Positions 11,082-50,480 of a DNA stretch of 64,000 nt are shown in pieces. Made by a program: the position numbers and the translations under genes. Numbering within the stretch: position 1 is the first letter of the stretch; each line of letters opens with the position of its first letter. Under the pieces are notes generated by a model, which did not search any database, was not told the DNA's origin, and saw only the letters and a program-made list of their open reading frames with translations. Location: positions 40,081 through 104,080 of the forward strand of contig VHIT02000014.1 in the NCBI GenBank assembly GCA_009768925.2, given 5' to 3'. Source of the DNA: Cryptosporidium bovis (taxonomy: Eukaryota; Apicomplexa; Conoidasida; Eucoccidiorida; Cryptosporidiidae).

Positions 11082-13754
11082 TTAGTTATATATGTTCCCT
11101 GAATCAGCATCTATTTTTGCTGAATTTTGAGAGGGAGAGGCTTTTGGAGAGCAGCATGGCTTTATCTCGTTCAAGTCACCAATATTATGATTGGTAGTTT
11201 CGAGATCGTCCTTTTTTTTATCGCTACTTGTTCCCTTCGTATTAATTTCAAGATCAACTCCCGTTGAGTCTTTTCTTCTCCTCTTTTTGGTTGTACTACC
11301 AATTGAGGTTTTAGAGTCGATTTCGACCTTAGGTCTTCTAATTGTAATGCTCGTGAGGCTTCTATATTTGTATTTTAATTGAAGAAGCTTGATTTGATTT
11401 AAAAAATATCTATGGGGAATGTCCTTTATCTTCTGACCCTCGAATGCAATGTTAGAGAATCGTTTTAAAATATAACCTTTAATCATTTGTTCAAGTCCCC
11501 TTGTTCCGTTCACAGGTAAGCCATCTTGCTCCTTTTGAACCGTTTTTACCATCAAATTTGCAGATGATATGTCCTTATAAACAAGTCTTAGCCTGTTAAT
11601 GCCGTGAATATATTCCAAAAGAGAAATACCAAAATCGAATACTAAATCACAGTCAATTGCTTTCATACTCTGTAGTGTAAATTCATTTGTTTTAGAAGAT
11701 GATTTTGATTTCTCCTGTGACACATTATTTTCGTTCTGAGAGGAATTTGCTGTTGGGTTGTTTTGCGTACTCGAATTGTTATCGGTTAACTGAGAAGCAC
11801 TAATTTCCTCGTTTTCCTCCTGAGAATTCTGATCCTCGCTCTTTAAATCAATTAAGGTTAATGTAGATCCAAGTTTCCGTGTATCGGAGTCATTTACAAT
11901 TGTATCTTGAGATGTCTCTATTGCAATTGTATTTGAATTTAACACCGTTTCTGTTTTATTTATTGCAGAATCATCTCTTTCTTTTAGTGAATTATTACTA
12001 GAACTTATTTGGGAATTATATTGAGAAATTGAATTCAGTATTTGTTTTACGTATTCAGGGGACTTGTTTTTTATGCTTGGATAGTTTATTATTGATTCAT
12101 AAGCATTTAGGTCAAGTTGATACAAAACTTCCTGATTGTGATTTAATACAAGCCTTAGCCATTTAATTCTAAAATTATCATATTTAGTCAGTAAATTAGC
12201 TATTGCAGAAGAATCCCCTTGAGATAGATTAATCTGCTTCTTTTTGTTATGCATTGGAACAGTTGCATTTAATGCTTGCCATATCACTTGGATTAACTTA
12301 GAGTCAAAAGGTACTACCTCGTAACTAGGATATATTGTTGTAAATAAAGACGGTATTTTGCAAAGTATTGGGTCTTTCTCAATTGTGTTAATTAATATAT
12401 CTATAGAATCTTGGATTTCTGGATCAATTGAGTCTTTCTCGATCTTAAAATTGCCATTCTTATTATAATAACTCTTGCATTTAGTATATGCCTCAGATAT
12501 TCGCTTCAGTTTTTCATTTAAAGACTTAAACCAATGTGAAACTACTTTTGGAGTGCGTTGAGGAAACAGATACTTTGAACTCGAATTTATTTCTTTAGCA
12601 ACAGGAGTTGATAAATCAACTGTTTCCTGGGAAAATGAAAGTGTGTCACCATAATTTAAATCAACAATAGGTGTTTGTGCAATATTTGCCGACTGATCAG
12701 AGGATAAATCCCTATTAATTGTTGTATTCTTTGGAGAATAATATGTCCAACAGTCAGTTCTAAGTTGAATAAGTAGCTTTAATATTTGATTATTAAGTAT
12801 TTCACGCATTGAAACACTCTTTTTTGACTCTTCACCGGAAGAAATATCTGAATCTTTGTTGGTATCATCTAATTCATTAGATGTATTTGAATCGGACTCA
12901 TAGTAGAAATCAATAAGGTCTCCTTGTGGATTATTATCGCAGCAAAAGGCATTTGGATCATTATAGTCCGCATATATTAACTCAGACGTTTGAATTGAAT
13001 TTGAACCAAATGAATCATCGTTTCCATTGTCATTTCTATTATAAAGATCGTCTAGTGATAAACCTAAGTCACCAACCATCTCAGAATCGTCGATAAAATC
13101 ATCGAAAACATCATAATAGTCCTCTTTACTCCTGTTTCCACCATTTCCACCTGTCATTGTCATAGGATTGAAGTAATACTCCCTAGGGTCACATAAGAGG
13201 CCCTGTTTTGAGAGTCTCGTTGACATTTCATGAACTCTTTTTCTAAGTACATTCTCACTCACAGCAATTGATTCGTTTTTAGTACTCGATTTAATAGTAT
13301 CCAAAAAGCTTGTTATATCTTTGTATGTCCTTTCGTTATCTTCATTTTCATAATTCTCAATTTCACAATCCTCTGTTTTCTCCTTTATTATTTTGTTCCA
13401 AATCTTCTTGCCATCAGAAATTTTTTTCTCCACTACATTATCCTCGCCATACACATCAATACATATGTCTCTGAAAGATATTAGTGTTGGTAACTGAATA
13501 TGCTTATCTAGTATTTCATTGTATATATACTTTATTGTTTCCTTTGGAACTTCGAGCACCAACTTTAAGCCCCTCTCAAATCTAAAAGAATCAACAATGG
13601 ACTGATAATCACTCTCGTCATCTTCATCATCTCCAACTACACTTGTGTCATCTTCCATTATTTTTTCTTCTAAACAATTTGTATTCTCAATTTCTCCCAA
13701 TACATTATTATTGTCGAGCAATTTATCATCATTTAGAGTAGAATTTATTAACAT
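11082..13754 (-). CDS. Ubinuclein/HPC2-like protein (HIRA-complex candidate)
   Basis: I start this gene at the ATG giving MLINSTLNDD (890 residues), because the upstream extension of the frame opens only at a TTG. About residues 205-245 contain 'YYDVFDDFIDDSEMVGDL', which closely matches the Hpc2-related (HRD) core of ubinucleins, the part that binds the HIRA histone H3.3 chaperone. The preceding segment ('EVPKETIKYIYNEILDKH...') and two large helical, lysine-rich regions (about 440-600 and 735-820) fit a ubinuclein middle-domain layout, separated by Ser/Asn/Gln-rich linkers. The C-terminus has a basic 'TTKKRRRKDS' nuclear-localisation-like stretch. Role in nucleosome assembly is inferred from the HRD-like motif alone. 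A CTGGCGCCAG palindrome lies 112 bp upstream. Confidence 0.6.
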   Translation of the reverse strand: MLINSTLNDDKLLDNNNVLGEIENTNCLEEKIMEDDTSVVGDDEDDESDYQSIVDSFRFERGLKLVLEVPKETIKYIYNEILDKHIQLPTLISFRDICIDVYGEDNVVEKKISDGKKIWNKIIKEKTEDCEIENYENEDNERTYKDITSFLDTIKSSTKNESIAVSENVLRKRVHEMSTRLSKQGLLCDPREYYFNPMTMTGGNGGNRSKEDYYDVFDDFIDDSEMVGDLGLSLDDLYNRNDNGNDDSFGSNSIQTSELIYADYNDPNAFCCDNNPQGDLIDFYYESDSNTSNELDDTNKDSDISSGEESKKSVSMREILNNQILKLLIQLRTDCWTYYSPKNTTINRDLSSDQSANIAQTPIVDLNYGDTLSFSQETVDLSTPVAKEINSSSKYLFPQRTPKVVSHWFKSLNEKLKRISEAYTKCKSYYNKNGNFKIEKDSIDPEIQDSIDILINTIEKDPILCKIPSLFTTIYPSYEVVPFDSKLIQVIWQALNATVPMHNKKKQINLSQGDSSAIANLLTKYDNFRIKWLRLVLNHNQEVLYQLDLNAYESIINYPSIKNKSPEYVKQILNSISQYNSQISSSNNSLKERDDSAINKTETVLNSNTIAIETSQDTIVNDSDTRKLGSTLTLIDLKSEDQNSQEENEEISASQLTDNNSSTQNNPTANSSQNENNVSQEKSKSSSKTNEFTLQSMKAIDCDLVFDFGISLLEYIHGINRLRLVYKDISSANLMVKTVQKEQDGLPVNGTRGLEQMIKGYILKRFSNIAFEGQKIKDIPHRYFLNQIKLLQLKYKYRSLTSITIRRPKVEIDSKTSIGSTTKKRRRKDSTGVDLEINTKGTSSDKKKDDLETTNHNIGDLNEIKPCCSPKASPSQNSAKIDADSGNIYN

Positions 13755-33300: not shown

Positions 33301-36300
33301 TTAAAAAATCTTAGTTACTGGCGTAACTATATATATTAAATCTGATTTCGAAATAATGTATTTGGGGTTAGGTGAAAGCAATAAAATCCTGTTGTTAAGA
33401 TTGAACTTCGGTGCAATTCGACCAAAATGATCGCTTACAGCATTTAAAGTGTTATTTCTTTCATTTATTGTCTGAAATCCATTGTATGAGCCAGGTTCTG
33501 GGAATTGTGAGTTTGGAATCTCACAATTATCTGTGAGTGTGTGAACTATTCCTATTGTTATTATTCCACTTATTCTAAGAATTTCTCTAAAAAGAGTCAA
33601 AAAGTTACATCCGTGAAATCTTTCTGGAATTGTGATAAGTTCTAATGCACCCCACTCAGTGTAATCTGGAACAAAATCGTTTTCAGGAGAAAAGCTACTT
33701 GAAGCTGAATAAAATCTTTGTAAGCTAAAATTTGAGATATTGTTTCTAATTTGATTATCAAAGGTCATTGGACTATTAAAAAAGTTATATCTTTCATTAT
33801 ATCCTAACAGTGGTTTTATTGAATCTGAAGTTGCCAAAATGGGATTTATTTTTACGCTTCTAAATATAATAGGTATAATCATATCCGTAGTTAATACTCT
33901 TCCTGATATAACGGTTGGGCAAGTAGAAAAGTCCCATTCATTGGATGATATCCAAGAAGTATTATCAAGCAGTGGAAGGGACTCTTCAAATCTTATATCT
34001 GCAATTATTGCAGGAAAGAAATACGGAGGGAGGTGACCACCCTCAAATAGCCACTTTTTTGTTAGCTGGGCCAAATTTGCTGTAATTTTCCATTGCCACA
34101 TATTCCATTTGGCATCAAACAATTTCAATTCTCTATTCTTTATTTCTGATGTATTGTTCTTTATATTATTTTTATTTTGTAATTTTGAAATGTAACTTAA
34201 TTTACTGTTATTATTCACCCCATTCTTTCTCAAAAGGACTATCTCTGCTTGTATCTTCATGTTAATTAACGAATGAATTCTCCAACATGTAGTTATGACT
34301 TTTGAATCACTATTAACTGAGTTTGATGAACAAACAACTATTGAGTGAGCATAAAACAATCCAGATCTTATCAAATCTTCATCATTAGATGAATTTCCAT
34401 TAATGTATATTCCAACACATCCTGGTGGAACTATTGCTTTCCTAAAGTACTTCTCATCGTTGTCTTTTGATAAAAAAACGATTATAGTTGATAAAATTAA
34501 TGACTGACTTGAAATTGGAACAGTTGTTTTAAAATGTCTATTATATCTATAATAATCCCATCCCACTGGTATTGACCTATTTAATATTACTCCATTTAGA
34601 AACTCTTGAATGGATTCAGGCCACTCGCAAACCAATAAAATAAATGTTGTGCCATGAATATATCCTTCTATCTTTGAAGGACAAAACATTTCAAGTTTTT
34701 CAATATGAGATATTTTTGAATATTTTAATTCTCTATGTACTGGTGAGGGTGGTAAACCTCTAACTTGTGTATTTTTAAAAATTGTCGATCTTCTTATTCT
34801 AGGAGTAATTGGTGTATCTACTTTCCAAGAAGGTATGATCAACTTATTGTTGATTAACTGCGTTTTTCCTTGTAAACAAAGCCTTATATAATTGAGTGAC
34901 TGTCTTACTTGTAAATTATGTATTTGTTGGTATTTTTCCAATTTGTCTTTTATTTTTCCTTTTTCATGGATAAAAGAAAATATTTTTTCCTTTGAATTAG
35001 ATATTATTAACAATTTCACGTCACTATCTCTTTCTATTATAAAGTCTCCATATTTCCATCTTTTACCAGTTATATAGTCTGATGGATTTAATATCTTTCT
35101 TCTAGTGGAGCCTACTTGTACCTTATCAATATTTTTAAAATAAATATTTTTATCCCCACTGTTTTCATTTGATTTGTTCACTTTAGATTTATTTGCAAAC
35201 ATTCTTAACTTTTTGAAACTTAATATTTCACTAGTTCCATTTCTGCTAGCCTCATTTCTTGCATCTTCCAACTCACTAGATTTACCTCCGGTGCTACTGT
35301 GATTTCTTGGAGTTTCACACTTTTCACAACTTTCATCGTCTGACGTAATTATGAAGTTAAATAACTCGTTTTCCTCATTATCCTCATCATAATCTACATT
35401 TTCCTCACTTTCGTATCCATTCTGACTTATTTGTAAACATTTATTTGGTTCTTCTTTCACATCTACTGTTATTCCAATGCAAATTAAAGAATACATATCG
35501 TATAAAAATGACGATATCTGTAAGAATTGCATGTTATTCATGTAGTCGGGCAATGGTATTTCCAGAAGTTCACAAAAAGTTCCATTTATGTAATCTTTTG
35601 CAAGCAAGTTTGCTTTTGATACAATATCTGCCAGTAAATCGTTGCCCCTAACTGAATTGTTTTGCGAAAATTCATTAAAATTGCCATTTTCCAAATCAAA
35701 CATGTCTATATCAATAGTCTCTGTTTCATTAACATCACCGACACTAGTTTCAGTACTTTTATTTGTATTCCTGGAAACATTTCCGGAAAAATCATTTACC
35801 TGATACAATCTATTGTCGCCATATTCATCTAATATACCTTTTATCGAATTATACAGTGATTTTTCCGTTGAACTGTCTTCTATTTTAATAGTATTGAATA
35901 AATTAGCCAAAAGTGTTGAGAATCCGGGGCATAAAGATGTTTTAGCTAATAATCTTGACCTCACTTCTGCTATATAAATAGATTTATAAGTGTTTCTGAA
36001 CTTTGTTGGATTATCACTTTTGTGAAAATCGTTTTTATTATTTTTTTGCCTTTCTTGCCCAAAATTCATCCTTTCTTTAATGATGTTTTTTATTCTGTTC
36101 ATCTCATTGTTGTGATCTGTATTTGACATTTTAGAAAGGTAAAATAAGTAACTACTTATTTCTTCAGGTCTGCTTGGTGCTTTTAGTATTGGATTATTTG
36201 ACAAAACCGTTCTCCTAGTTGTATTTACATCTTGAATTCCATATAGATCATAAAAGTGGTCGTCCCTAAGAGCATTATCCAACTTGAAATCCGAATTTTC

Positions 36301-38523
36301 ACCGTTAAATACAACAACAGAGTCAATACAGTAATTCGTTGACATATCGGTTAAAAATTTGTCAGAATTGCATTGTCCATACTTCCTAAATATTAACTTT
36401 TCGGACACAAATACAGACTCATTCTGTCTCGTTTTGAATAAATATTCATAATCATCCAGGTTTAAAAATTTTCTCACCGAATACCAGGCCATCATAGTAT
36501 CTCTTTCCAAATCAAGCAGTTTTTCAAAAGTCACAACTTTGGAATTCCCTTTTCCGAGTTGTTTATCAATATACTTGAAACTCGACCCATTTGAGTTCTC
36601 ATTCAGTGAAATATCAGTTGGAGATAAAACTTGAGCATTAATTGCATCACTCCAGAAGTAAATGGCAGTTATAAATCCCCTAATACTCTCAATATCCTCC
36701 TTTAGATTTTCAAAGTTTTTAAGTTTTTTCACGAAAAGTTGTGTCTTTAAAGAAATTTGAGAATCCTTAACAAGTTTAGAATATTCTCTTGGATCTACTG
36801 TAGTTAAAACCATAACTATAGGTTGATATCTAATTATATTTCCAGAATTTCCATTGAATTTTTTTATTAAATCTATATTAACATTAAGTTGGTTGAGTTC
36901 CATTAATAAATATGAAAGATGCTTAACAGATGGTGTCCCTATTACCAATACTAGCTTTGTATGAATGTGCTCTTTTTCAAATATGCTTTCATCATAAACT
37001 CCTACATTACATACCCCAATAGTTTCTGGAGGTGTTTGGGCCAACTGAAAAAGTTTACTTATTTGATTAGGAACATATATAATTGTGAATATAATGAGTA
37101 CAATACATACAAGTCTTGATACGAAGTATGTGGGTGAGTAGTCACCATACCCTACAGTTGAAATTGTAATAATTGTATAGTAAACAAAATCAAATAGATT
37201 TTTAAAATTTTCTCTGGGGGATTCTATAATCATCATTGCTCCAGAAAAACCTAGGACGACACAGGTAATTGTCCAAATAACGGTTATGCACGTCCTCATT
37301 ACCTCAGTTGACCAATAGAAGATAATAAAGAGAATTGGAATAGGATTCAACAATCTAAAAAACCTGAGGAATCCAAGTACAAATAACGTTGTAATTGGTC
37401 CAGTTCCTATTGAATACTTCATTATCAATAATACGGGTGATGTTGTTAAGACTTCAAATAGAGAGACAAACATTGAAGAAGTAATAAGATATTTCATTGC
37501 CATTATCCTATTGATTCCTCTACTCAACCTTGATATCTCAAGCAAAATCTTATAAAATAAACTGAAATCCGCTATCCAAAGAAATGCCTCGTCAAAAAGT
37601 AATAATTTTTCAATACCACTTTTTATTTTCCAAGGTTCCTCATATGATGCTCTCGTCAAATAATGTGTATCTATTACCCACAAAAACGCCCATGCTAAGT
37701 TGATTAAAAATACTGAAACTTGGACAAAGTCCTTTGAAAAAAACGCATTTAGACCTCTTAGAAAATAACGATCGTAAATATGTAGTATTTTGCTTCTAAT
37801 CAAGTCAGATTTTCTACTATTTACAATATTACCTTCTGTTATATTAGAAAAAGATTTTGAGATGATAATTTTATTCATTTTCCTGTGGTCCAATTCCTCT
37901 AGATTATTAGTGACACTTCTCCTTGTACCTATACTTTTATTTCTCATGCTAGTAATACTTGTTATTTTTTCAAGCAATTTATTATTATTCGAGTTTGATG
38001 ATACAAATGAATTAGCATTTGCCAATACATTTGTACTTGGATCTGCATAATTCAACAAAATTTTCGATGCCCCATTATTTCGCCCCCGATCATTTTCATC
38101 ATTATCGTTTTCACTTTTTCTTTCATCGTCTAACGTAAACTCTATATCTAGATTATTAAAAGCAAGTACATTGTTCTCCCTTTTCTCTATTTTCTCGCAA
38201 CTCTCATAATTCCCAAAAAACTCTTCTAATTGAATTTTATTTATTTCGATATTCTTTTGCAGACCCAATTTAGCTAGCCTTCTCCTTATTAACTTCCTTC
38301 TCACACCAAAAATATATCTCTTTATTCTCCCGAACGTTTCTAAGGGGTAAATCAATATCTTGATAAATATCACGAAGAATATTGTACATACAAAAATACC
38401 AACAGCTAACGCTAATGCTATTATATATTTTAGATCGTGAAACAAGAATAAATGGCAAGCAACCAAGGATACTGCGTAGATTATCAGGATTGGAATAGAT
38501 AACCAAGCATGATAAAAAATCAT
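33301..38523 (-). CDS. Large BK/Slo-like potassium channel
   Basis: The 1,740-residue protein has two N-terminal spans (about 5-60), a long Asn/Ser-rich cytosolic insert, then S1-S6-like spans (about 255-490). The pore carries 'TISTVGYGDYSP' (about 451-462), the classical K+ selectivity filter TVGYGD. The voltage-sensor span is poor in arginine ('GFLRFFRLLNPIP'). After S6 comes an RCK-type fold ('HTKLVLVIGTPSVKHLSYLL', about 519), as in calcium-activated BK channels, with a second, widely interrupted RCK-like region extending to the C-terminus. Large low-complexity insertions (about 600-1,150) enlarge it beyond usual BK length (about 1,200). It is likely a plasma-membrane K+ channel; gating by calcium is inferred. 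A GGCGCC site lies 106 bp upstream. Confidence 0.92.
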   Translation of the reverse strand: MIFYHAWLSIPILIIYAVSLVACHLFLFHDLKYIIALALAVGIFVCTIFFVIFIKILIYPLETFGRIKRYIFGVRRKLIRRRLAKLGLQKNIEINKIQLEEFFGNYESCEKIEKRENNVLAFNNLDIEFTLDDERKSENDNDENDRGRNNGASKILLNYADPSTNVLANANSFVSSNSNNNKLLEKITSITSMRNKSIGTRRSVTNNLEELDHRKMNKIIISKSFSNITEGNIVNSRKSDLIRSKILHIYDRYFLRGLNAFFSKDFVQVSVFLINLAWAFLWVIDTHYLTRASYEEPWKIKSGIEKLLLFDEAFLWIADFSLFYKILLEISRLSRGINRIMAMKYLITSSMFVSLFEVLTTSPVLLIMKYSIGTGPITTLFVLGFLRFFRLLNPIPILFIIFYWSTEVMRTCITVIWTITCVVLGFSGAMMIIESPRENFKNLFDFVYYTIITISTVGYGDYSPTYFVSRLVCIVLIIFTIIYVPNQISKLFQLAQTPPETIGVCNVGVYDESIFEKEHIHTKLVLVIGTPSVKHLSYLLMELNQLNVNIDLIKKFNGNSGNIIRYQPIVMVLTTVDPREYSKLVKDSQISLKTQLFVKKLKNFENLKEDIESIRGFITAIYFWSDAINAQVLSPTDISLNENSNGSSFKYIDKQLGKGNSKVVTFEKLLDLERDTMMAWYSVRKFLNLDDYEYLFKTRQNESVFVSEKLIFRKYGQCNSDKFLTDMSTNYCIDSVVVFNGENSDFKLDNALRDDHFYDLYGIQDVNTTRRTVLSNNPILKAPSRPEEISSYLFYLSKMSNTDHNNEMNRIKNIIKERMNFGQERQKNNKNDFHKSDNPTKFRNTYKSIYIAEVRSRLLAKTSLCPGFSTLLANLFNTIKIEDSSTEKSLYNSIKGILDEYGDNRLYQVNDFSGNVSRNTNKSTETSVGDVNETETIDIDMFDLENGNFNEFSQNNSVRGNDLLADIVSKANLLAKDYINGTFCELLEIPLPDYMNNMQFLQISSFLYDMYSLICIGITVDVKEEPNKCLQISQNGYESEENVDYDEDNEENELFNFIITSDDESCEKCETPRNHSSTGGKSSELEDARNEASRNGTSEILSFKKLRMFANKSKVNKSNENSGDKNIYFKNIDKVQVGSTRRKILNPSDYITGKRWKYGDFIIERDSDVKLLIISNSKEKIFSFIHEKGKIKDKLEKYQQIHNLQVRQSLNYIRLCLQGKTQLINNKLIIPSWKVDTPITPRIRRSTIFKNTQVRGLPPSPVHRELKYSKISHIEKLEMFCPSKIEGYIHGTTFILLVCEWPESIQEFLNGVILNRSIPVGWDYYRYNRHFKTTVPISSQSLILSTIIVFLSKDNDEKYFRKAIVPPGCVGIYINGNSSNDEDLIRSGLFYAHSIVVCSSNSVNSDSKVITTCWRIHSLINMKIQAEIVLLRKNGVNNNSKLSYISKLQNKNNIKNNTSEIKNRELKLFDAKWNMWQWKITANLAQLTKKWLFEGGHLPPYFFPAIIADIRFEESLPLLDNTSWISSNEWDFSTCPTVISGRVLTTDMIIPIIFRSVKINPILATSDSIKPLLGYNERYNFFNSPMTFDNQIRNNISNFSLQRFYSASSSFSPENDFVPDYTEWGALELITIPERFHGCNFLTLFREILRISGIITIGIVHTLTDNCEIPNSQFPEPGSYNGFQTINERNNTLNAVSDHFGRIAPKFNLNNRILLLSPNPKYIISKSDLIYIVTPVTKIF

Positions 38524-44294: not shown

Positions 44295-47200
44295 TTATTT
44301 TGTGTCCTCAATATGTTTTTTGTTTTTGTTATGCTTTATTTTTCTAAGCAATTCAATAAACACACTGTCATTTCCATATCCATTACCCAATATACGTTGT
44401 GGGTCATGGAACAAATACGATGGTATGTAACTCTTTGGTTGTATACGATATGATAGCTTAGTCACATTTATATGTGTATTTTGACCTTTAGACTTTTGAA
44501 TTGAATTATTATCTTCACAATTAGAAGATAGTAAATCATTACTTAATACACTTCCCATACTAATTCTTGAACCTCTTCTTTCAAATTCAATATTTTCTTT
44601 TATACTAATATCTGAATCTTTATTACCATTATTCATTACTGATTTTTCTTTAAGTTGTGGTACATATGTTTTTCTTCTATGTTTTACCCAAACTACACTC
44701 ATTGTTGAACTCACACTTGATAGTACTTCCTCAGTTAACAACCCTGCCTTTTTAGTATTTGGTACACATCTATATTGATATAAATTAGGTTCAAAGTAAA
44801 ACAAATCATTTAATTGATTTGTACGTTTTTCAGGTATTTGTAAAATATCTAAATTTTTACAACTTTCAGGTAAATTTATTGTTTTTTTATCAACTTTATC
44901 TTTTTGTTTCTTTTTGATACTTTTAAAACCAACCCAGCTATTTGTTTTATCATCATTCAGTGTCTCACCCGACTTTACTGATATATTTTGTGATTTACCT
45001 TCTTCAGTTCTTAATAACGATATTATTTCAAATCCATACAATTCACTGTCGTCTGTTATAACAGCAACTGAACTTACTGTGCAAGCGACTTGTGTTAATA
45101 TTTTATTTTCCCATAAGCCATGTCTAACTATTGTAGGACATTTTATTGCCTTGTTAGAAACAATTGAAGTATTCTGAGATTTTATATTCAGTTTGTTATG
45201 TTCTATATTTTTAAATGAGGATGTGTTACCACCTATTTTCTCATAAACCTTAAAATTACCCCATATATACATTACATTAACACCATCTTCTATTGTAGCA
45301 CAAACAAAATCTAAACCTGCACTTATTGATGATATTATTATTTTGTTACCTGAAATTAACGCATGTAAACTTCTTCTTCTTACTTGTTTTTTTAGTTCCT
45401 CTGAATATTCCAATTTCAGTAAGTCAACTGTTGGTAATTGTAACATTGTTGGTTTTAATATATGTCCCTTTGTATTCATGCCTATTTGTCCTTTATCATT
45501 TCTCCCCCAAATAAATAAATGATTTGTACAAACTATATTAAAACCATTACCACATAAAATGTGCCTAACTCCACCATTTTTATTTGTTTTTAAATTTTGA
45601 TAGTTATATGCATTATTATTACCATTATTAGTTATATTATTATTTGAAGTTTCTACTGCTGGTAATTCCACAATAAATGGTTCATAAAAATTTGCATTTC
45701 TTGAAGTTGTGTCATAGTCTTCTAAATGACCATATAGTGATCTAAATCTGTGATCTTCCAGACATAGATGTGTTCCAGCACCCCACATAAATACGGTTCC
45801 ATTTTGTGTAACTACACCGCAATGCCTTACACCTGCTGATGCCATATAAACCTGTTCTTCCTTAAGTGATTCAACTATTTTTGGATTTGGAATATATGCA
45901 TAATTGTGGCCATGACCACATTGACCGTAAGTATTATCACCCCAAGTAAATAATTTACCATCAGATGTTATTGCCATGGAATAATCTGAACCACATCCAA
46001 CCCATCTTATTCTTTTTGTATAATCAATTTGCCTTATTAAATAACGCATTAATCTACCTGTATTTTTACTCTTTACATATCTATATTCATAATCGATAAA
46101 TTTTACAGGTTCTCTAATATCGGATGATACCAAATCTAATATTGGTAAACCCAATTGACCTTGATCATTGACACCCCATGAGTATACATGATTTCTATAT
46201 TCAAAATTCAATAACTTTCCTGATGTTTGACCTAATAGTGCCCCACCATTATTCGTACCATTTTTTGAATTCCTGCTTGACTCGTCATAATGATCAAACG
46301 AATCTAAATCTATAGTATCATCACCTTGTCCTGATAATATGCGTTCTGCTAATAAAACTAATGTGTGCCTTTGACCCAATGAAAATTGAAGTATTTTTAA
46401 AGGTGGAAATTGCTTCGTTGGTGCTATCTCGAATATCGCACTACATAATCTTCTACACAAAGTCACAAACCCTCTTCCCCATGTACTTGGATAAAAATCA
46501 CCAACGTCTTTAATTATGTTTAGGTCTACTGGATTCAAAAATACTGTATTACTTTCAACTATTTTTGCTAACGGTTGGAATAATCCTTGCATACTTAATA
46601 ATGGATATCTCATCATATCAAATTGTTTCATTTCTCTTATTAAGAAATTATTCATTTCTATAGATTTTTTTATTGGATCTCTTGGTATTTTTCTTTGAAT
46701 GTTAAATTTATTGACCGTATTTAATAATGGATCCCCTGAAGATGACTTCTTTTTTAATATGTAATTAAGTCTCCACCATTGTTGCAATAATGTTATTGAC
46801 CTTATTGCTTTGTAGTATCTATAAACTTCCAAGCAAGTATATGCTCTACATTGAATCACTTGAGCAGAAAAACATAATTTAGCATACTGCCTTTTGCATA
46901 AAGCCATGCGAAATACTCTTTGAATAATTATTGCCTTATTTACCACTTCTCTATGAGCTCTTATTTGTTCTCTAAATACATGGCTCCTTCTTAATGTACC
47001 TCTATACTCAATGTGCTTTGCTATTCCAATTCTTGTTATTGACTTTCTTTTTAAGGATAATAAACATCTCTTTAACATAAATAACTTACATGTTTTTTTT
47101 CTGACCAGCCAACCTCTAAATACTGCTTGAATTTTTACTGCTTTATAATTCGGTGTTTTTGTAAATGCTAATTTCTCAACTAGTGATGCTTGAGCTTTCA

Positions 47201-50200
47201 ATGTTCTCCATGCTGATTGAATTACCTCTATAGAAAATTCTCTAAATTCATTATAACGATATAATATAACCCTTCTGCGTACCATCTCACCTCTCCACCA
47301 AGCTTGGATTGAAGTTGCAGCACAATTTCTGAGGAATCTGCGCTCATGTTCACGTTGTTGAGCTAGTTCTTCTAATTTATCAAATATTGTGGATGTTTTG
47401 ACCCACGGTATTGCCAAATGTAATAATAGTACTATTCCGCATATTAATTGGCGAAATGGTAATATTTTTTTCCATACTAGAGATACTGATCTCATTCTTA
47501 TTAAGGACTGTATTCTTACGCTCATCATTCGCAGATTTGTAACAAAGAATCTTGGTTTTAAAGTTCTCCAGGCATTTTGAAGAATAATTGTTGCAGGCAA
47601 GATCTTTTTCAAGTATTCTTCTCTTCTTCTCTCAAGAACTAAAATCATTTTATTTCGAATAAATAAATTTTGCCTTCCAATTAAATATTCGACTTCAGGA
47701 ACCTCCAAACCATGCAATAGAGTCCTTACTGAGTCACCAACATTATCCTGCATTATTAATTTTTCTAATATACCTTTTTTGTGGATTCTAGGGATGTATA
47801 TTTCACTAAATTTAATTAGAAATACTTTCAGTGGAATTTTAACTGTGAAACCATATTGCTGAAGCAAAACTTGAGAAGATATATTATACATTGATAAATC
47901 CTTGATTATTTTGTCCTCACGAATTTCTTCGTGTGTATCTTCATCACTATAAAAACTACTTGCACAAACAGTGAAAAAAATATTTGAATTTTTCAAGCTT
48001 TTGTTTAATAAAGAAGACGTTTTAATTGCTATTTGTGACATTGATGGGGAACCCGGTATTGCACTTGTTCTCATCCAAGATAAATCGGTAAAGTCTTCAA
48101 CTTTGCTCCAAAATGATTCAAATTGTATGATGTCAGGTTCTTCATCAATAAAAACCTTTGTTTTCTTTTTTTGATTGTTTACCTTGTTATTTTGTTTATC
48201 AAATTTATACTTTTCATCAACTTCCAATAATTTAGTCCAAAATGTACGGATAAGAGTATTTTTTGATTTTTTTAGGAGTTCTTCAACTTTGGTCGGAACT
48301 TGGTTTAAACAATCCTCTTCTGCCATTCCAAAAATATTGTATCTACATTTTCCAAATGAGTGGTTGATCGCTATTTCAGTTTGTGAATATTCTGGAAGAT
48401 CTATAACATCATTTTCTTCAATCATTACACTTGAATTTAATACCAAATTTTCATCACCTAACTCTAGATCATCAATAACATTTAGGAACAGGTCTGCTCC
48501 TTTTGAATCTGCACGATTTATTTGTTTTGCTTTTATTTTCCTATATTTCTTTATCCTATTTGAACAATAATTGTGGTGCGTTTTACATACTTCATTTCTT
48601 CTTTTTTGCAATATATCAAAAGGATAATGAGTGAACATAGACTCTCCTCTAATTAAATAATCTTCATTAATTAGTAATATGTCACTGCTTGCATAACTTT
48701 TCAATAATTTAGAGTAGATCGATCTTGAGGGTTCCAAATCAATTCTTCCAAACTCGTCACACGGTGTTGCTCTATGAGAGGTAGATAATTCACCACTATC
48801 TTTTTTTATTTCATAAATAAAGTCTTCTACTCTTTTTTGCCTTTTTGATGTTATCCTTAACAAACTTAACACTCCTTTTTCCTTTTCATCAAGAACACTT
48901 ACTATTTTACCGATATTAGGATAGTCCAATGGTAACATATCTAAACCCTCAGATTCAAGGTTATTTTTTTCAGAGAGAAATACCTTATCAATATAATTCG
49001 TTTTAATCATTTCTTCTGAATAATTTTGTAATAGATTTGAAAGAGAATATCCCTGATCATTAAAACCCGGACCATGAATAATGATAAAAGATTCATAATT
49101 TGATACTGACAACTCTTGTGGGCGTAGATTTTCATTAAAAACACTTGATAACCAGTCAACCAATCTACAATAAATAGAAACACCTAATTGTAAATACTCA
49201 AAAGGCGTCTTTATTGTTTGTTCCATATCCCCCAGTTCTAATCCAAGTAATTTTGATATCAAGGGTAGAAAAACCACTTTTGCATTGAATATGTCACTTT
49301 CTTTGGAATTCAATAATAAAGACGTATATGCATCGATTATAACCACAGCCATAATTATCTTGAAAAACTCTACTTTTTGAATATCATTTAACCCAAGTGT
49401 ATTAAGTGATCCAATCGACATTTTGAACCCTCTTAGATGATCTATATAATTCATATTCAATTTAGGAGATACTTGAGCCAAATAAATCATAATTTCAGAT
49501 TTTGTCAATCTCATTGCTTGTATCAACTGATTATTTTTATCCAAGATCATGCCATGCGCTAATTGATAAAAAATAGAAAAAAACCCTTCATTTTCTCTCA
49601 AAAAACATGTCAAAGGTGTTACATTCAAAGACCACAAGTATATATGTAATCCCAAAAAATAACCTTCTCTGGCAATAAATATTCTCCATATTTGCCCGGA
49701 ATAACTCCGGCCATAACTATAGTATTTGCCCCCTCCTTCCATTGATTCACCTGGTGTTTGGATTAAACTCCTTATTAGATGAACGCATGATCCTAATTTT
49801 TCTGAAATGACATATGAACTCTTCAAATGTTTATATAGACTGAGATTTCTTGCCAAAAAACGGATAAGCATGTGTAAATTAAAACATTTACCTGTATTTT
49901 TATTTCCCATAATAATTATTACTTGGTCTAGATGTTTTTCAGTCCAACTTATTAGAGATCTTCTGGCGATTGTGAAAATGTGTGGTTCAAACTTGGTTTT
50001 CATTTCTGTCCAATATCTTTGTATTTCCAGACTGTTGTATGACTTCATTAACCTTGGAATTTTTTCCGCTCTTGGTAAAATAAAAATTAGAACATTACCA
50101 CTAAATGTATAGCAAAGACCTATTGAGCACCTTTCACCGAGAATATGAGAGATTCCGTGAGGAGTACATACATCCATTAATGACAGATCGAAACTATTTA

Positions 50201-50480
50201 TCGGCTTGTCTAAAATTAAACCTATTCTGTCTTTTGGATAACTCTTTATTTTTACTAAATTTTGTGTTTTATTTGACTTAAATTCAACCATTACATTTTC
50301 ACCAAGATTTGCATCTCTTAGACATCCTCTCCGAAAATCAACATTCTCACCATTTACATCATGAACCCAAACTGGTATTCCAAATGGTATTATTGACTCT
50401 CTCTGATCTTTTGAAGTAATGTACTTTATGGTATTCACTATTTCTTTATTAACCCCATTTTGAAGCTTATTTTCGTTCAT
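44295..50480 (-). CDS. MyoH-like myosin: degenerate motor, IQ motifs, RCC1 repeats
   Basis: The 2,061-residue intronless protein begins with a myosin head (about residues 10-850), as judged by 'FEPHIFTIARRSLISW', 'IYLWSLN' with 'FFSIFYQLAHGM', 'YCRLVDWLSSVFNENL' and 'LLQNYSEEMI'. IQ motifs follow (about 1,000-1,240: 'AATSIQAWWRGEMVRRRV', 'IQAVFRGWLVRKK', 'IIQRVFRMALCKRQ'). RCC1/ATS1 repeats come next (about 1,380-1,670: 'YSWGVNDQGQLG', 'LFTWGDNTYGQCGHG', 'LFIWGRNDKGQIG'), then a low-complexity tail. This order is that of Toxoplasma MyoH, a conoid myosin needed for gliding. However, the P-loop reads GNKNTGKC (about 190), with the Ser/Thr replaced by Cys; switch I lacks NSSRFG; and switch II (D-I-x-G-F-E) reads HGPGFN. 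The head is probably unable to hydrolyse ATP normally. Confidence 0.88.
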   Translation of the reverse strand: MNENKLQNGVNKEIVNTIKYITSKDQRESIIPFGIPVWVHDVNGENVDFRRGCLRDANLGENVMVEFKSNKTQNLVKIKSYPKDRIGLILDKPINSFDLSLMDVCTPHGISHILGERCSIGLCYTFSGNVLIFILPRAEKIPRLMKSYNSLEIQRYWTEMKTKFEPHIFTIARRSLISWTEKHLDQVIIIMGNKNTGKCFNLHMLIRFLARNLSLYKHLKSSYVISEKLGSCVHLIRSLIQTPGESMEGGGKYYSYGRSYSGQIWRIFIAREGYFLGLHIYLWSLNVTPLTCFLRENEGFFSIFYQLAHGMILDKNNQLIQAMRLTKSEIMIYLAQVSPKLNMNYIDHLRGFKMSIGSLNTLGLNDIQKVEFFKIIMAVVIIDAYTSLLLNSKESDIFNAKVVFLPLISKLLGLELGDMEQTIKTPFEYLQLGVSIYCRLVDWLSSVFNENLRPQELSVSNYESFIIIHGPGFNDQGYSLSNLLQNYSEEMIKTNYIDKVFLSEKNNLESEGLDMLPLDYPNIGKIVSVLDEKEKGVLSLLRITSKRQKRVEDFIYEIKKDSGELSTSHRATPCDEFGRIDLEPSRSIYSKLLKSYASSDILLINEDYLIRGESMFTHYPFDILQKRRNEVCKTHHNYCSNRIKKYRKIKAKQINRADSKGADLFLNVIDDLELGDENLVLNSSVMIEENDVIDLPEYSQTEIAINHSFGKCRYNIFGMAEEDCLNQVPTKVEELLKKSKNTLIRTFWTKLLEVDEKYKFDKQNNKVNNQKKKTKVFIDEEPDIIQFESFWSKVEDFTDLSWMRTSAIPGSPSMSQIAIKTSSLLNKSLKNSNIFFTVCASSFYSDEDTHEEIREDKIIKDLSMYNISSQVLLQQYGFTVKIPLKVFLIKFSEIYIPRIHKKGILEKLIMQDNVGDSVRTLLHGLEVPEVEYLIGRQNLFIRNKMILVLERRREEYLKKILPATIILQNAWRTLKPRFFVTNLRMMSVRIQSLIRMRSVSLVWKKILPFRQLICGIVLLLHLAIPWVKTSTIFDKLEELAQQREHERRFLRNCAATSIQAWWRGEMVRRRVILYRYNEFREFSIEVIQSAWRTLKAQASLVEKLAFTKTPNYKAVKIQAVFRGWLVRKKTCKLFMLKRCLLSLKRKSITRIGIAKHIEYRGTLRRSHVFREQIRAHREVVNKAIIIQRVFRMALCKRQYAKLCFSAQVIQCRAYTCLEVYRYYKAIRSITLLQQWWRLNYILKKKSSSGDPLLNTVNKFNIQRKIPRDPIKKSIEMNNFLIREMKQFDMMRYPLLSMQGLFQPLAKIVESNTVFLNPVDLNIIKDVGDFYPSTWGRGFVTLCRRLCSAIFEIAPTKQFPPLKILQFSLGQRHTLVLLAERILSGQGDDTIDLDSFDHYDESSRNSKNGTNNGGALLGQTSGKLLNFEYRNHVYSWGVNDQGQLGLPILDLVSSDIREPVKFIDYEYRYVKSKNTGRLMRYLIRQIDYTKRIRWVGCGSDYSMAITSDGKLFTWGDNTYGQCGHGHNYAYIPNPKIVESLKEEQVYMASAGVRHCGVVTQNGTVFMWGAGTHLCLEDHRFRSLYGHLEDYDTTSRNANFYEPFIVELPAVETSNNNITNNGNNNAYNYQNLKTNKNGGVRHILCGNGFNIVCTNHLFIWGRNDKGQIGMNTKGHILKPTMLQLPTVDLLKLEYSEELKKQVRRRSLHALISGNKIIISSISAGLDFVCATIEDGVNVMYIWGNFKVYEKIGGNTSSFKNIEHNKLNIKSQNTSIVSNKAIKCPTIVRHGLWENKILTQVACTVSSVAVITDDSELYGFEIISLLRTEEGKSQNISVKSGETLNDDKTNSWVGFKSIKKKQKDKVDKKTINLPESCKNLDILQIPEKRTNQLNDLFYFEPNLYQYRCVPNTKKAGLLTEEVLSSVSSTMSVVWVKHRRKTYVPQLKEKSVMNNGNKDSDISIKENIEFERRGSRISMGSVLSNDLLSSNCEDNNSIQKSKGQNTHINVTKLSYRIQPKSYIPSYLFHDPQRILGNGYGNDSVFIELLRKIKHNKNKKHIEDTK

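What the first reader, a model, noticed from the sequence alone, without database searches (positions are those of the whole stretch)
44295..50480. A giant RCC1-tail myosin with a degenerate motor
The fold-level landmarks of a myosin head are clear, but three ATPase elements are changed: the P-loop reads GNKNTGKC (Thr to Cys), switch I lacks the NSSRFG sequence, and the switch II D-I-x-G-F-E reads HGPGFN. The IQ and RCC1 parts look intact. By family knowledge, Toxoplasma MyoH, with the same layout, is an essential active motor at the conoid. Here the head may have become a nucleotide-independent scaffold, or it may use altered chemistry. Three independent sites changing together argues against simple sequencing error.
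Basis: partly seen in the sequence, partly recalled or inferred. Interest (0 to 1): 0.75.

Follow-up and report, generated by a model that had tools for sequence, protein, structure and literature searches.

The report
Cryptosporidium MyoL, a dead-motor myosin
The gene encodes the Cryptosporidium version of myosin L, a myosin-shaped part of the parasite's apical invasion ring whose motor has lost the residues needed to burn ATP, so it probably works as a bracket rather than as a motor.

Summary
The 2061-aa ORF (44295-50480, minus) has a divergent myosin head, IQ neck and RCC1 tail. P-loop, switch I and switch II are non-canonical and intact nowhere else in the protein. This is not error or recent decay: 8 other Cryptosporidium orthologues share the changes, and all 6 other myosin loci found in the same genome keep canonical motifs. 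The MyoH comparison is wrong. MyoH is a separate gene in this genome with an intact head (601 bits). The window protein's best solved relative is Toxoplasma myosin L (TgMyoL, PDB 9ya0), a subunit of the preconoidal P2 ring; that match rests on neck and tail, as the head alone is too divergent. TgMyoL, two Eimeria and one Babesia homologues are also degenerate, all four with Gln at the P-loop lysine. Between this species and Eimeria the MyoL head is 22-26% identical against 52% for MyoH, while necks and RCC1 domains are similar. Best reading: MyoL is an ancient apicomplexan pseudo-myosin kept as a structural, perhaps Ca2+-responsive, ring bracket. The published proposal that MyoL translocates actin is hard to square with this. 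A 2026 MyoL preprint could not be read, so priority is open.

The parts
44295..50480 (-). whole MyoL gene, single open frame, 2061 aa
   Evidence: 8 orthologues of 2065-2170 aa in other Cryptosporidium
48801..50189 (-). degenerate myosin head core, residues 98-560
49884..49907 (-). P-loop slot, residues 192-199, GNKNTGKC (canonical GESGAGKT)
49695..49718 (-). switch I slot, residues 255-262, SYGRSYSG (canonical NNNSSRFG; the Arg of the slot is lost)
49059..49076 (-). switch II slot, residues 469-474, HGPGFN (canonical DIxGFE)
   Evidence: register uncertain by two residues
47901..48800 (-). lower-50K-like region with a long insert, residues 561-860; least conserved of five regions compared; a strand-like stretch HSFGKCRY aligns with the canonical strand after the helix-loop-helix
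46761..47900 (-). converter end and IQ lever/neck, residues 861-1240; most conserved of five regions (226 of 380 positions invariant in 9 Cryptosporidium proteins)
   Evidence: part of the best alignment block to TgMyoL
44991..46205 (-). RCC1-like domain, residues 1426-1830

Best explanation
This is the Cryptosporidium orthologue of apicomplexan myosin L, a pseudo-myosin. Its head keeps the myosin fold, a recognisable converter end and an IQ lever, but very probably cannot run the ATPase cycle: the P-loop Thr, the switch I Arg and the switch II Asp and Glu are gone. It most likely sits in the preconoidal P2 ring with formin 1, with EF-hand light chains on its neck, as a structural and perhaps Ca2+-sensitive bracket rather than a walking motor. 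Shown here: relationship to MyoL, motif loss across the family, weaker head constraint than in MyoH, and a formin 1 homologue in the same genome. Taken from the Toxoplasma paper: ring location, light chains, requirement for growth. Inferred: that the Cryptosporidium protein sits in the same place, lacks ATPase activity and works as a bracket. The statement leaves open whether the head binds actin or nucleotide, so the first two rivals overlap with it.
For: TgMyoL is the best PDB match of the whole protein: E 9.1e-99, and 1014.7 bits from a 12-sequence family profile with head (228.7 bits) and neck-tail (773.5) both aligned. P-loop and switch II are non-canonical in 9 of 9 Cryptosporidium, 2 of 2 Eimeria and 1 of 1 Babesia; switch I in 11 of these 12, the twelfth (E. 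intestinalis) being a gap in the gene model. TgMyoL reads GELDAAQD at the P-loop and ASTGLD at switch II and shows no NSSRFG. Six of 6 other myosin loci found are intact. Paired control: MyoL head 22 and 26% identity to two Eimeria MyoL against 52% for MyoH to two Eimeria MyoH, with necks 32 and 29% against 29% and RCC1 domains 30 and 33% against 34 and 33%. MyoL and MyoH heads separate in a tree at 100/99 (17 of 20 rows used). Myosin fold. In Toxoplasma, MyoL lies on the P2 outer rim with CAM1, CAM4 and MLC4, and its depletion stops plaque formation (PMC12819142, section 10 read whole). A formin here best matches Toxoplasma formin 1 of that ring (E 1.8e-209, best stretch in the C-terminal part).
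Against: No biochemistry. PMC12819142 calls MyoL a motor and proposes an actin translocation step; it also notes that an earlier study found MyoL dispensable, which it puts down to partial disruption (passages). The head alone points to ordinary myosins: in a head-only PDB search scallop myosin leads (E 2.8e-15) and TgMyoL is not among the 60 rows listed of 139. Cryptosporidium keeps G-x4-G-K in 9 of 9 proteins, so nucleotide binding is not excluded. Babesia does not show the head-only contrast (head 22%, neck 26%, RCC1 25%); its RCC1 part matches the window protein less well (39.3 bits) than MyoH does (54.9 and 59.9), and its head is below the Pfam cut-off (20.4 against 33.3). Identities near 22% are close to alignment noise. 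The tree program warned that MyoL long branches meet. Structure models are weak (pLDDT 46.9 and 58.7). Localisation in Cryptosporidium is inferred.
Confidence: 0.76

Rival explanations
1. Natural rigor tether: the head still binds actin without a nucleotide cycle and holds formin-made filaments at the ring. (Overlaps with the best explanation.)
For: Both Eimeria, the Babesia and the Toxoplasma MyoL carry Gln at the P-loop Lys, the substitution used to make rigor 'dead' myosins in T. cruzi (PMC7300353, passages). Myosin-18A shows no ATPase activity yet binds actin (PMC7900500, passages). Toxoplasma MyoL shares the P2 outer rim with formin 1.
Against: The stretch aligned with the actin-binding helix-loop-helix has lost its canonical residues and a long insert follows. 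Cryptosporidium keeps the Lys. Actin binding was not testable.
Confidence: 0.2
2. Nucleotide-sensing, non-hydrolysing switch: Cryptosporidium MyoL binds ATP or ADP through the retained G-x4-GKC and changes lever position without cycling. (Overlaps with the best explanation.)
For: GKC is invariant in 9 of 9 Cryptosporidium proteins; 8 of the 14 positions 191-204 are invariant, against 150 of 463 in the head core.
Against: The four non-Cryptosporidium members seen have lost the Lys, so this is unlikely to be the family's general mode; switch I Arg and switch II acid are absent.
Confidence: 0.15
3. Active motor with altered chemistry.
For: Converter end and IQ lever are well conserved; PMC12819142 proposes actin translocation by MyoL (passage).
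Against: Switch I Arg and switch II acid are missing together in Cryptosporidium, and the family shares no one alternative set of residues at these slots.
Confidence: 0.04
4. Pseudogene or assembly error.
For: None found.
Against: Proteins of 2061-2170 aa in 9 Cryptosporidium sources, with invariant positions inside the changed motifs.
Confidence: 0.01

Closest known systems
Toxoplasma gondii myosin L, TgMyoL (TGME49_291020; PDB 9ya0)
   Same: head, IQ neck and RCC1 tail; degenerate motor; best whole-protein match
   Different: TgMyoL P-loop is GELDAAQD (Lys also lost); Cryptosporidium keeps G-x4-GK with Cys for Thr; heads are barely alignable one to one (7.1 and 5.9 bits); Cryptosporidium location untested
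Eimeria myosin H (MyoH) and its orthologue L011 in this genome
   Same: domain order head, IQ neck, RCC1 tail
   Different: MyoH has an intact motor (600.9 bits for L011; motifs) and separates from MyoL in the head tree
Myosin-18A
   Same: myosin without ATPase activity (PMC7900500, passages)
   Different: different tail; kinship beyond the myosin head not tested
Trypanosoma cruzi MyHd pseudomyosin
   Different: different lineage and location; sequences not compared here

Membership tests
Apicomplexan myosin L | best whole-protein match to MyoL rather than MyoH | tested here: met
   neck 141.2 bits to E. praecox MyoL against 39.6 and 35.2 to MyoH, RCC1 part 118.5 against 54.9 and 59.9
Apicomplexan myosin L | degenerate head that separates from MyoH in a tree | tested here: met
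   motifs; 100/99 support, with a long-branch warning from the program
Apicomplexan myosin L | location in preconoidal ring P2 | not testable with these tools
   shown in Toxoplasma only (PMC12819142)
Apicomplexan myosin L | EF-hand light chains on the neck | tested here: inconclusive
   IQ motifs present, 42.3 bits; binding not testable
Myosin H (class XIV) | canonical P-loop, switch I and switch II | tested here: not met
Myosin H (class XIV) | best match to MyoH | tested here: not met
   L011 fills this role
Myosin superfamily (fold) | myosin motor fold | tested here: met
Functional myosin motors | ATPase activity and actin movement | not testable with these tools
   sequence predicts absence

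The most novel reading that the evidence does not exclude
MyoL is a phylum-wide pseudo-myosin in which the ATPase was lost before Cryptosporidium split from coccidia and piroplasms while fold and lever were kept. Rows of such heads around the roughly 46-repeat ring (MyoL copy number per repeat not checked) would act as fixed, Ca2+-tunable actin catchers next to formin 1, so the first step of actin flow at the apex would be capture and orientation of filaments rather than motor translocation.
Probability: 0.25. Interest if true: 0.7.

Novelty: new member of a known kind. Interest (0 to 1): 0.5.

Why it matters
Myosin L was recently found to be needed for Toxoplasma growth and invasion and was proposed to add an actin translocation step at the apex (PMC12819142). 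The P-loop and switch II are non-canonical in 13 of 13 members seen here (12, TgMyoL), which argues that a required 'motor' of the invasion machinery is not a motor. That would change how gliding is thought to begin and can be tested in vitro. For Cryptosporidium it separates an active-looking MyoH from a dead-looking MyoL, which share a domain layout and are easy to confuse.

Tried and rejected
Rejected: MyoH identity; sequencing error or pseudogene; intact motifs elsewhere in the protein.

Led nowhere: the region 870-1600 search found 222 proteins, 120 listed; beyond the 9 Cryptosporidium rows the other 111 are RCC1-repeat proteins, and no other MyoL came up. The first search, region 1-1200, gave Cryptosporidium only. 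The first structure prediction (residues 1-966) had mean pLDDT 46.9 and was not used for fold search. The second (84-560) had 58.7, was built with two canonical Eimeria MyoH in its alignment, and was used only for fold class; TgMyoL is not among the listed Foldseek or VIA-align rows, which says nothing against the match. Of four formin places found, L021 was searched and matched formin 1; L022, cut by the end of the fetched stretch, was searched and did not list it at E 0.1; L023 was fetched and not searched; the fourth was not fetched further. PMC7951837 lists number 1435500 in its Plasmodium column of the MyoL row (passages); that sequence was not examined, and a search for the gene number gave no paper on it. 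No dN/dS was done, because no DNA of the other species was held.

Literature: I saw no statement that MyoL is catalytically dead in the listings (no papers), nor in PMC12819142 (term find; section 10 read whole). [quoted passage not shown] it may already say so.

Full report
What is there. The window holds a single open frame at 44295-50480 on the minus strand, 2061 aa. Pfam finds a divergent myosin head (101.5 bits; residues 103-550; profile 8-453 of 679), IQ motifs and an RCC1-like domain. The closest named orthologue is from Cryptosporidium ryanae (90% identity over the searched region 1-1200), so the source is a Cryptosporidium near it (lineage).

The motif claim holds. The P-loop slot reads GNKNTGKC, switch I SYGRSYSG, switch II HGPGFN. 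The nine Cryptosporidium proteins (window, seven named species, one unnamed) agree: GKC in 9 of 9, no Arg at the switch I slot in 9 of 9, and H[GS]PG at switch II in 9 of 9. At least seven myosin loci are found in the genome; the six others all keep GESGAGKT, N(N)SSR and DI[YF]GFE. The changes are therefore old and specific to this gene.

Which myosin it is. The best solved relative of the whole protein is Toxoplasma myosin L, chain 9ya0_NA, at E 9.1e-99, chiefly over residues 870-1575; one to one, its head adds only 7.1 and 5.9 bits. With the head alone, ordinary myosins lead (scallop, E 2.8e-15) and TgMyoL is not among the 60 rows listed of 139. A profile of 12 MyoL sequences does align the TgMyoL head (228.7 bits) and neck-tail (773.5 bits), 1014.7 bits in all. 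Using the Toxoplasma neck letters I recovered two Eimeria MyoL, one Babesia homologue and two Eimeria MyoH. The window protein prefers Eimeria MyoL (274.5 and 166.6 bits; Babesia 119.7) over MyoH (108.9 and 107.7), whereas locus L011 prefers MyoH (1084 and 1002) over MyoL (62 and 52). The preference comes from neck and tail; the head alone gives 42.5 and 41.0 bits for MyoL against 36.7 and 30.9 for MyoH. L011 has a full canonical head (600.9 bits, 2-679 of 679) and an RCC1 tail; its best PDB matches are Plasmodium and Toxoplasma MyoA. L011 is the MyoH orthologue here. A maximum-likelihood tree of 17 of the 20 heads separates MyoL from MyoH at 100/99 and from all eight canonical heads at 99/98; the MyoL branches are long and the program warns that their joining may be false.

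The degeneracy is a family trait. Toxoplasma reads GELDAAQD at the P-loop and ASTGLD at switch II. Eimeria read GAFGSGQD and GPFGCGQD, and Babesia reads GDSSFGQM. These four have Gln where the catalytic Lys belongs; Cryptosporidium keeps the Lys and has Cys for the following Thr. The E. intestinalis gene model has a gap at switch I, so that cell is empty rather than degenerate.

A paired control. Between this species and two Eimeria, the MyoH head is 52% identical, its neck 29% and its RCC1 domain 33-34%. The MyoL head is 22 and 26%, its neck 32 and 29%, its RCC1 domain 30 and 33%. Neck and tail are thus alike in the two families while the head has lost its constraint in MyoL. Babesia, which has no MyoH partner here, is low throughout (22, 26 and 25%), and identities near 22% are close to noise. 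Within Cryptosporidium the converter and IQ neck are the most conserved region (226 of 380 positions invariant; RCC1 194 of 405; post-neck 92 of 185), the head core has 150 of 463 and the lower-50K-like region 71 of 300.

Mechanism. In Toxoplasma, MyoL lies on the outer rim of the preconoidal P2 ring, its neck with CAM1, CAM4 and MLC4; depletion stops plaque formation and reduces invasion; the ring is estimated at 46 repeats and also carries formin 1 (PMC12819142, section 10 read whole). That paper calls it a motor, suggests an extra actin translocation step before MyoH, and attributes an earlier report of dispensability to partial disruption (passages); a term search of its text found no comment on the catalytic residues. 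The window's genome carries a formin that best matches that formin 1 (E 1.8e-209; best stretch in the C-terminal part). I infer that Cryptosporidium MyoL is the corresponding ring subunit and works without an ATPase cycle, as a bracket whose light-chain-loaded lever may answer to Ca2+. Whether it holds actin is open. The Lys-to-Gln change of four members is the substitution used elsewhere to make rigor myosins (PMC7300353, passages), and myosin-18A gives a precedent for actin binding without ATPase activity (PMC7900500, passages).

Known or new. The MyoL family and its ring location are published for Toxoplasma; PMC5477499 calls TgMyoL unclassified and places it at the conoid and cytosol (passages). 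I saw no statement that the family is catalytically dead in the listings, but a 2026 preprint on MyoL is cited in PMC12918799 and could not be read. I therefore file the gene as a new member of a known kind, with a useful correction to how the family is described. What the missing motifs do in the ATPase cycle is recalled knowledge of myosins, not a result of a call.

Noticed in passing
G000 contig C2, locus L011:1063-6012 (-): MyoH orthologue of this species: intact motor head, IQ motif and RCC1 tail, 1650 aa.
   Followed up: yes
P0121, P0122, P0123 and TgMyoL: Gln replaces the P-loop Lys in the four non-Cryptosporidium MyoL seen, as in engineered rigor myosins.
   Followed up: partly
window 48831-48848 (-): Residues 545-550 form a basic SKRQKR patch (S545, R547 and Q548 invariant in the 9 Cryptosporidium proteins) just after the stretch aligned with the canonical helix-loop-helix EExC.
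   Followed up: no
G000 contig C3, locus L021:4513-9516 (+): Formin of 1668 aa in the open frame, best matching Toxoplasma formin 1 of the P2 ring.
   Followed up: partly
window 33301-38523 (-): 1740-aa protein with an ion channel domain and a BK-type Ca2+-activated potassium channel domain.
   Followed up: no
window 11082-13754 (-): Weak HUN (ubinuclein) domain match below the curated cut-off (23.5 against 26.9 bits).
   Followed up: no
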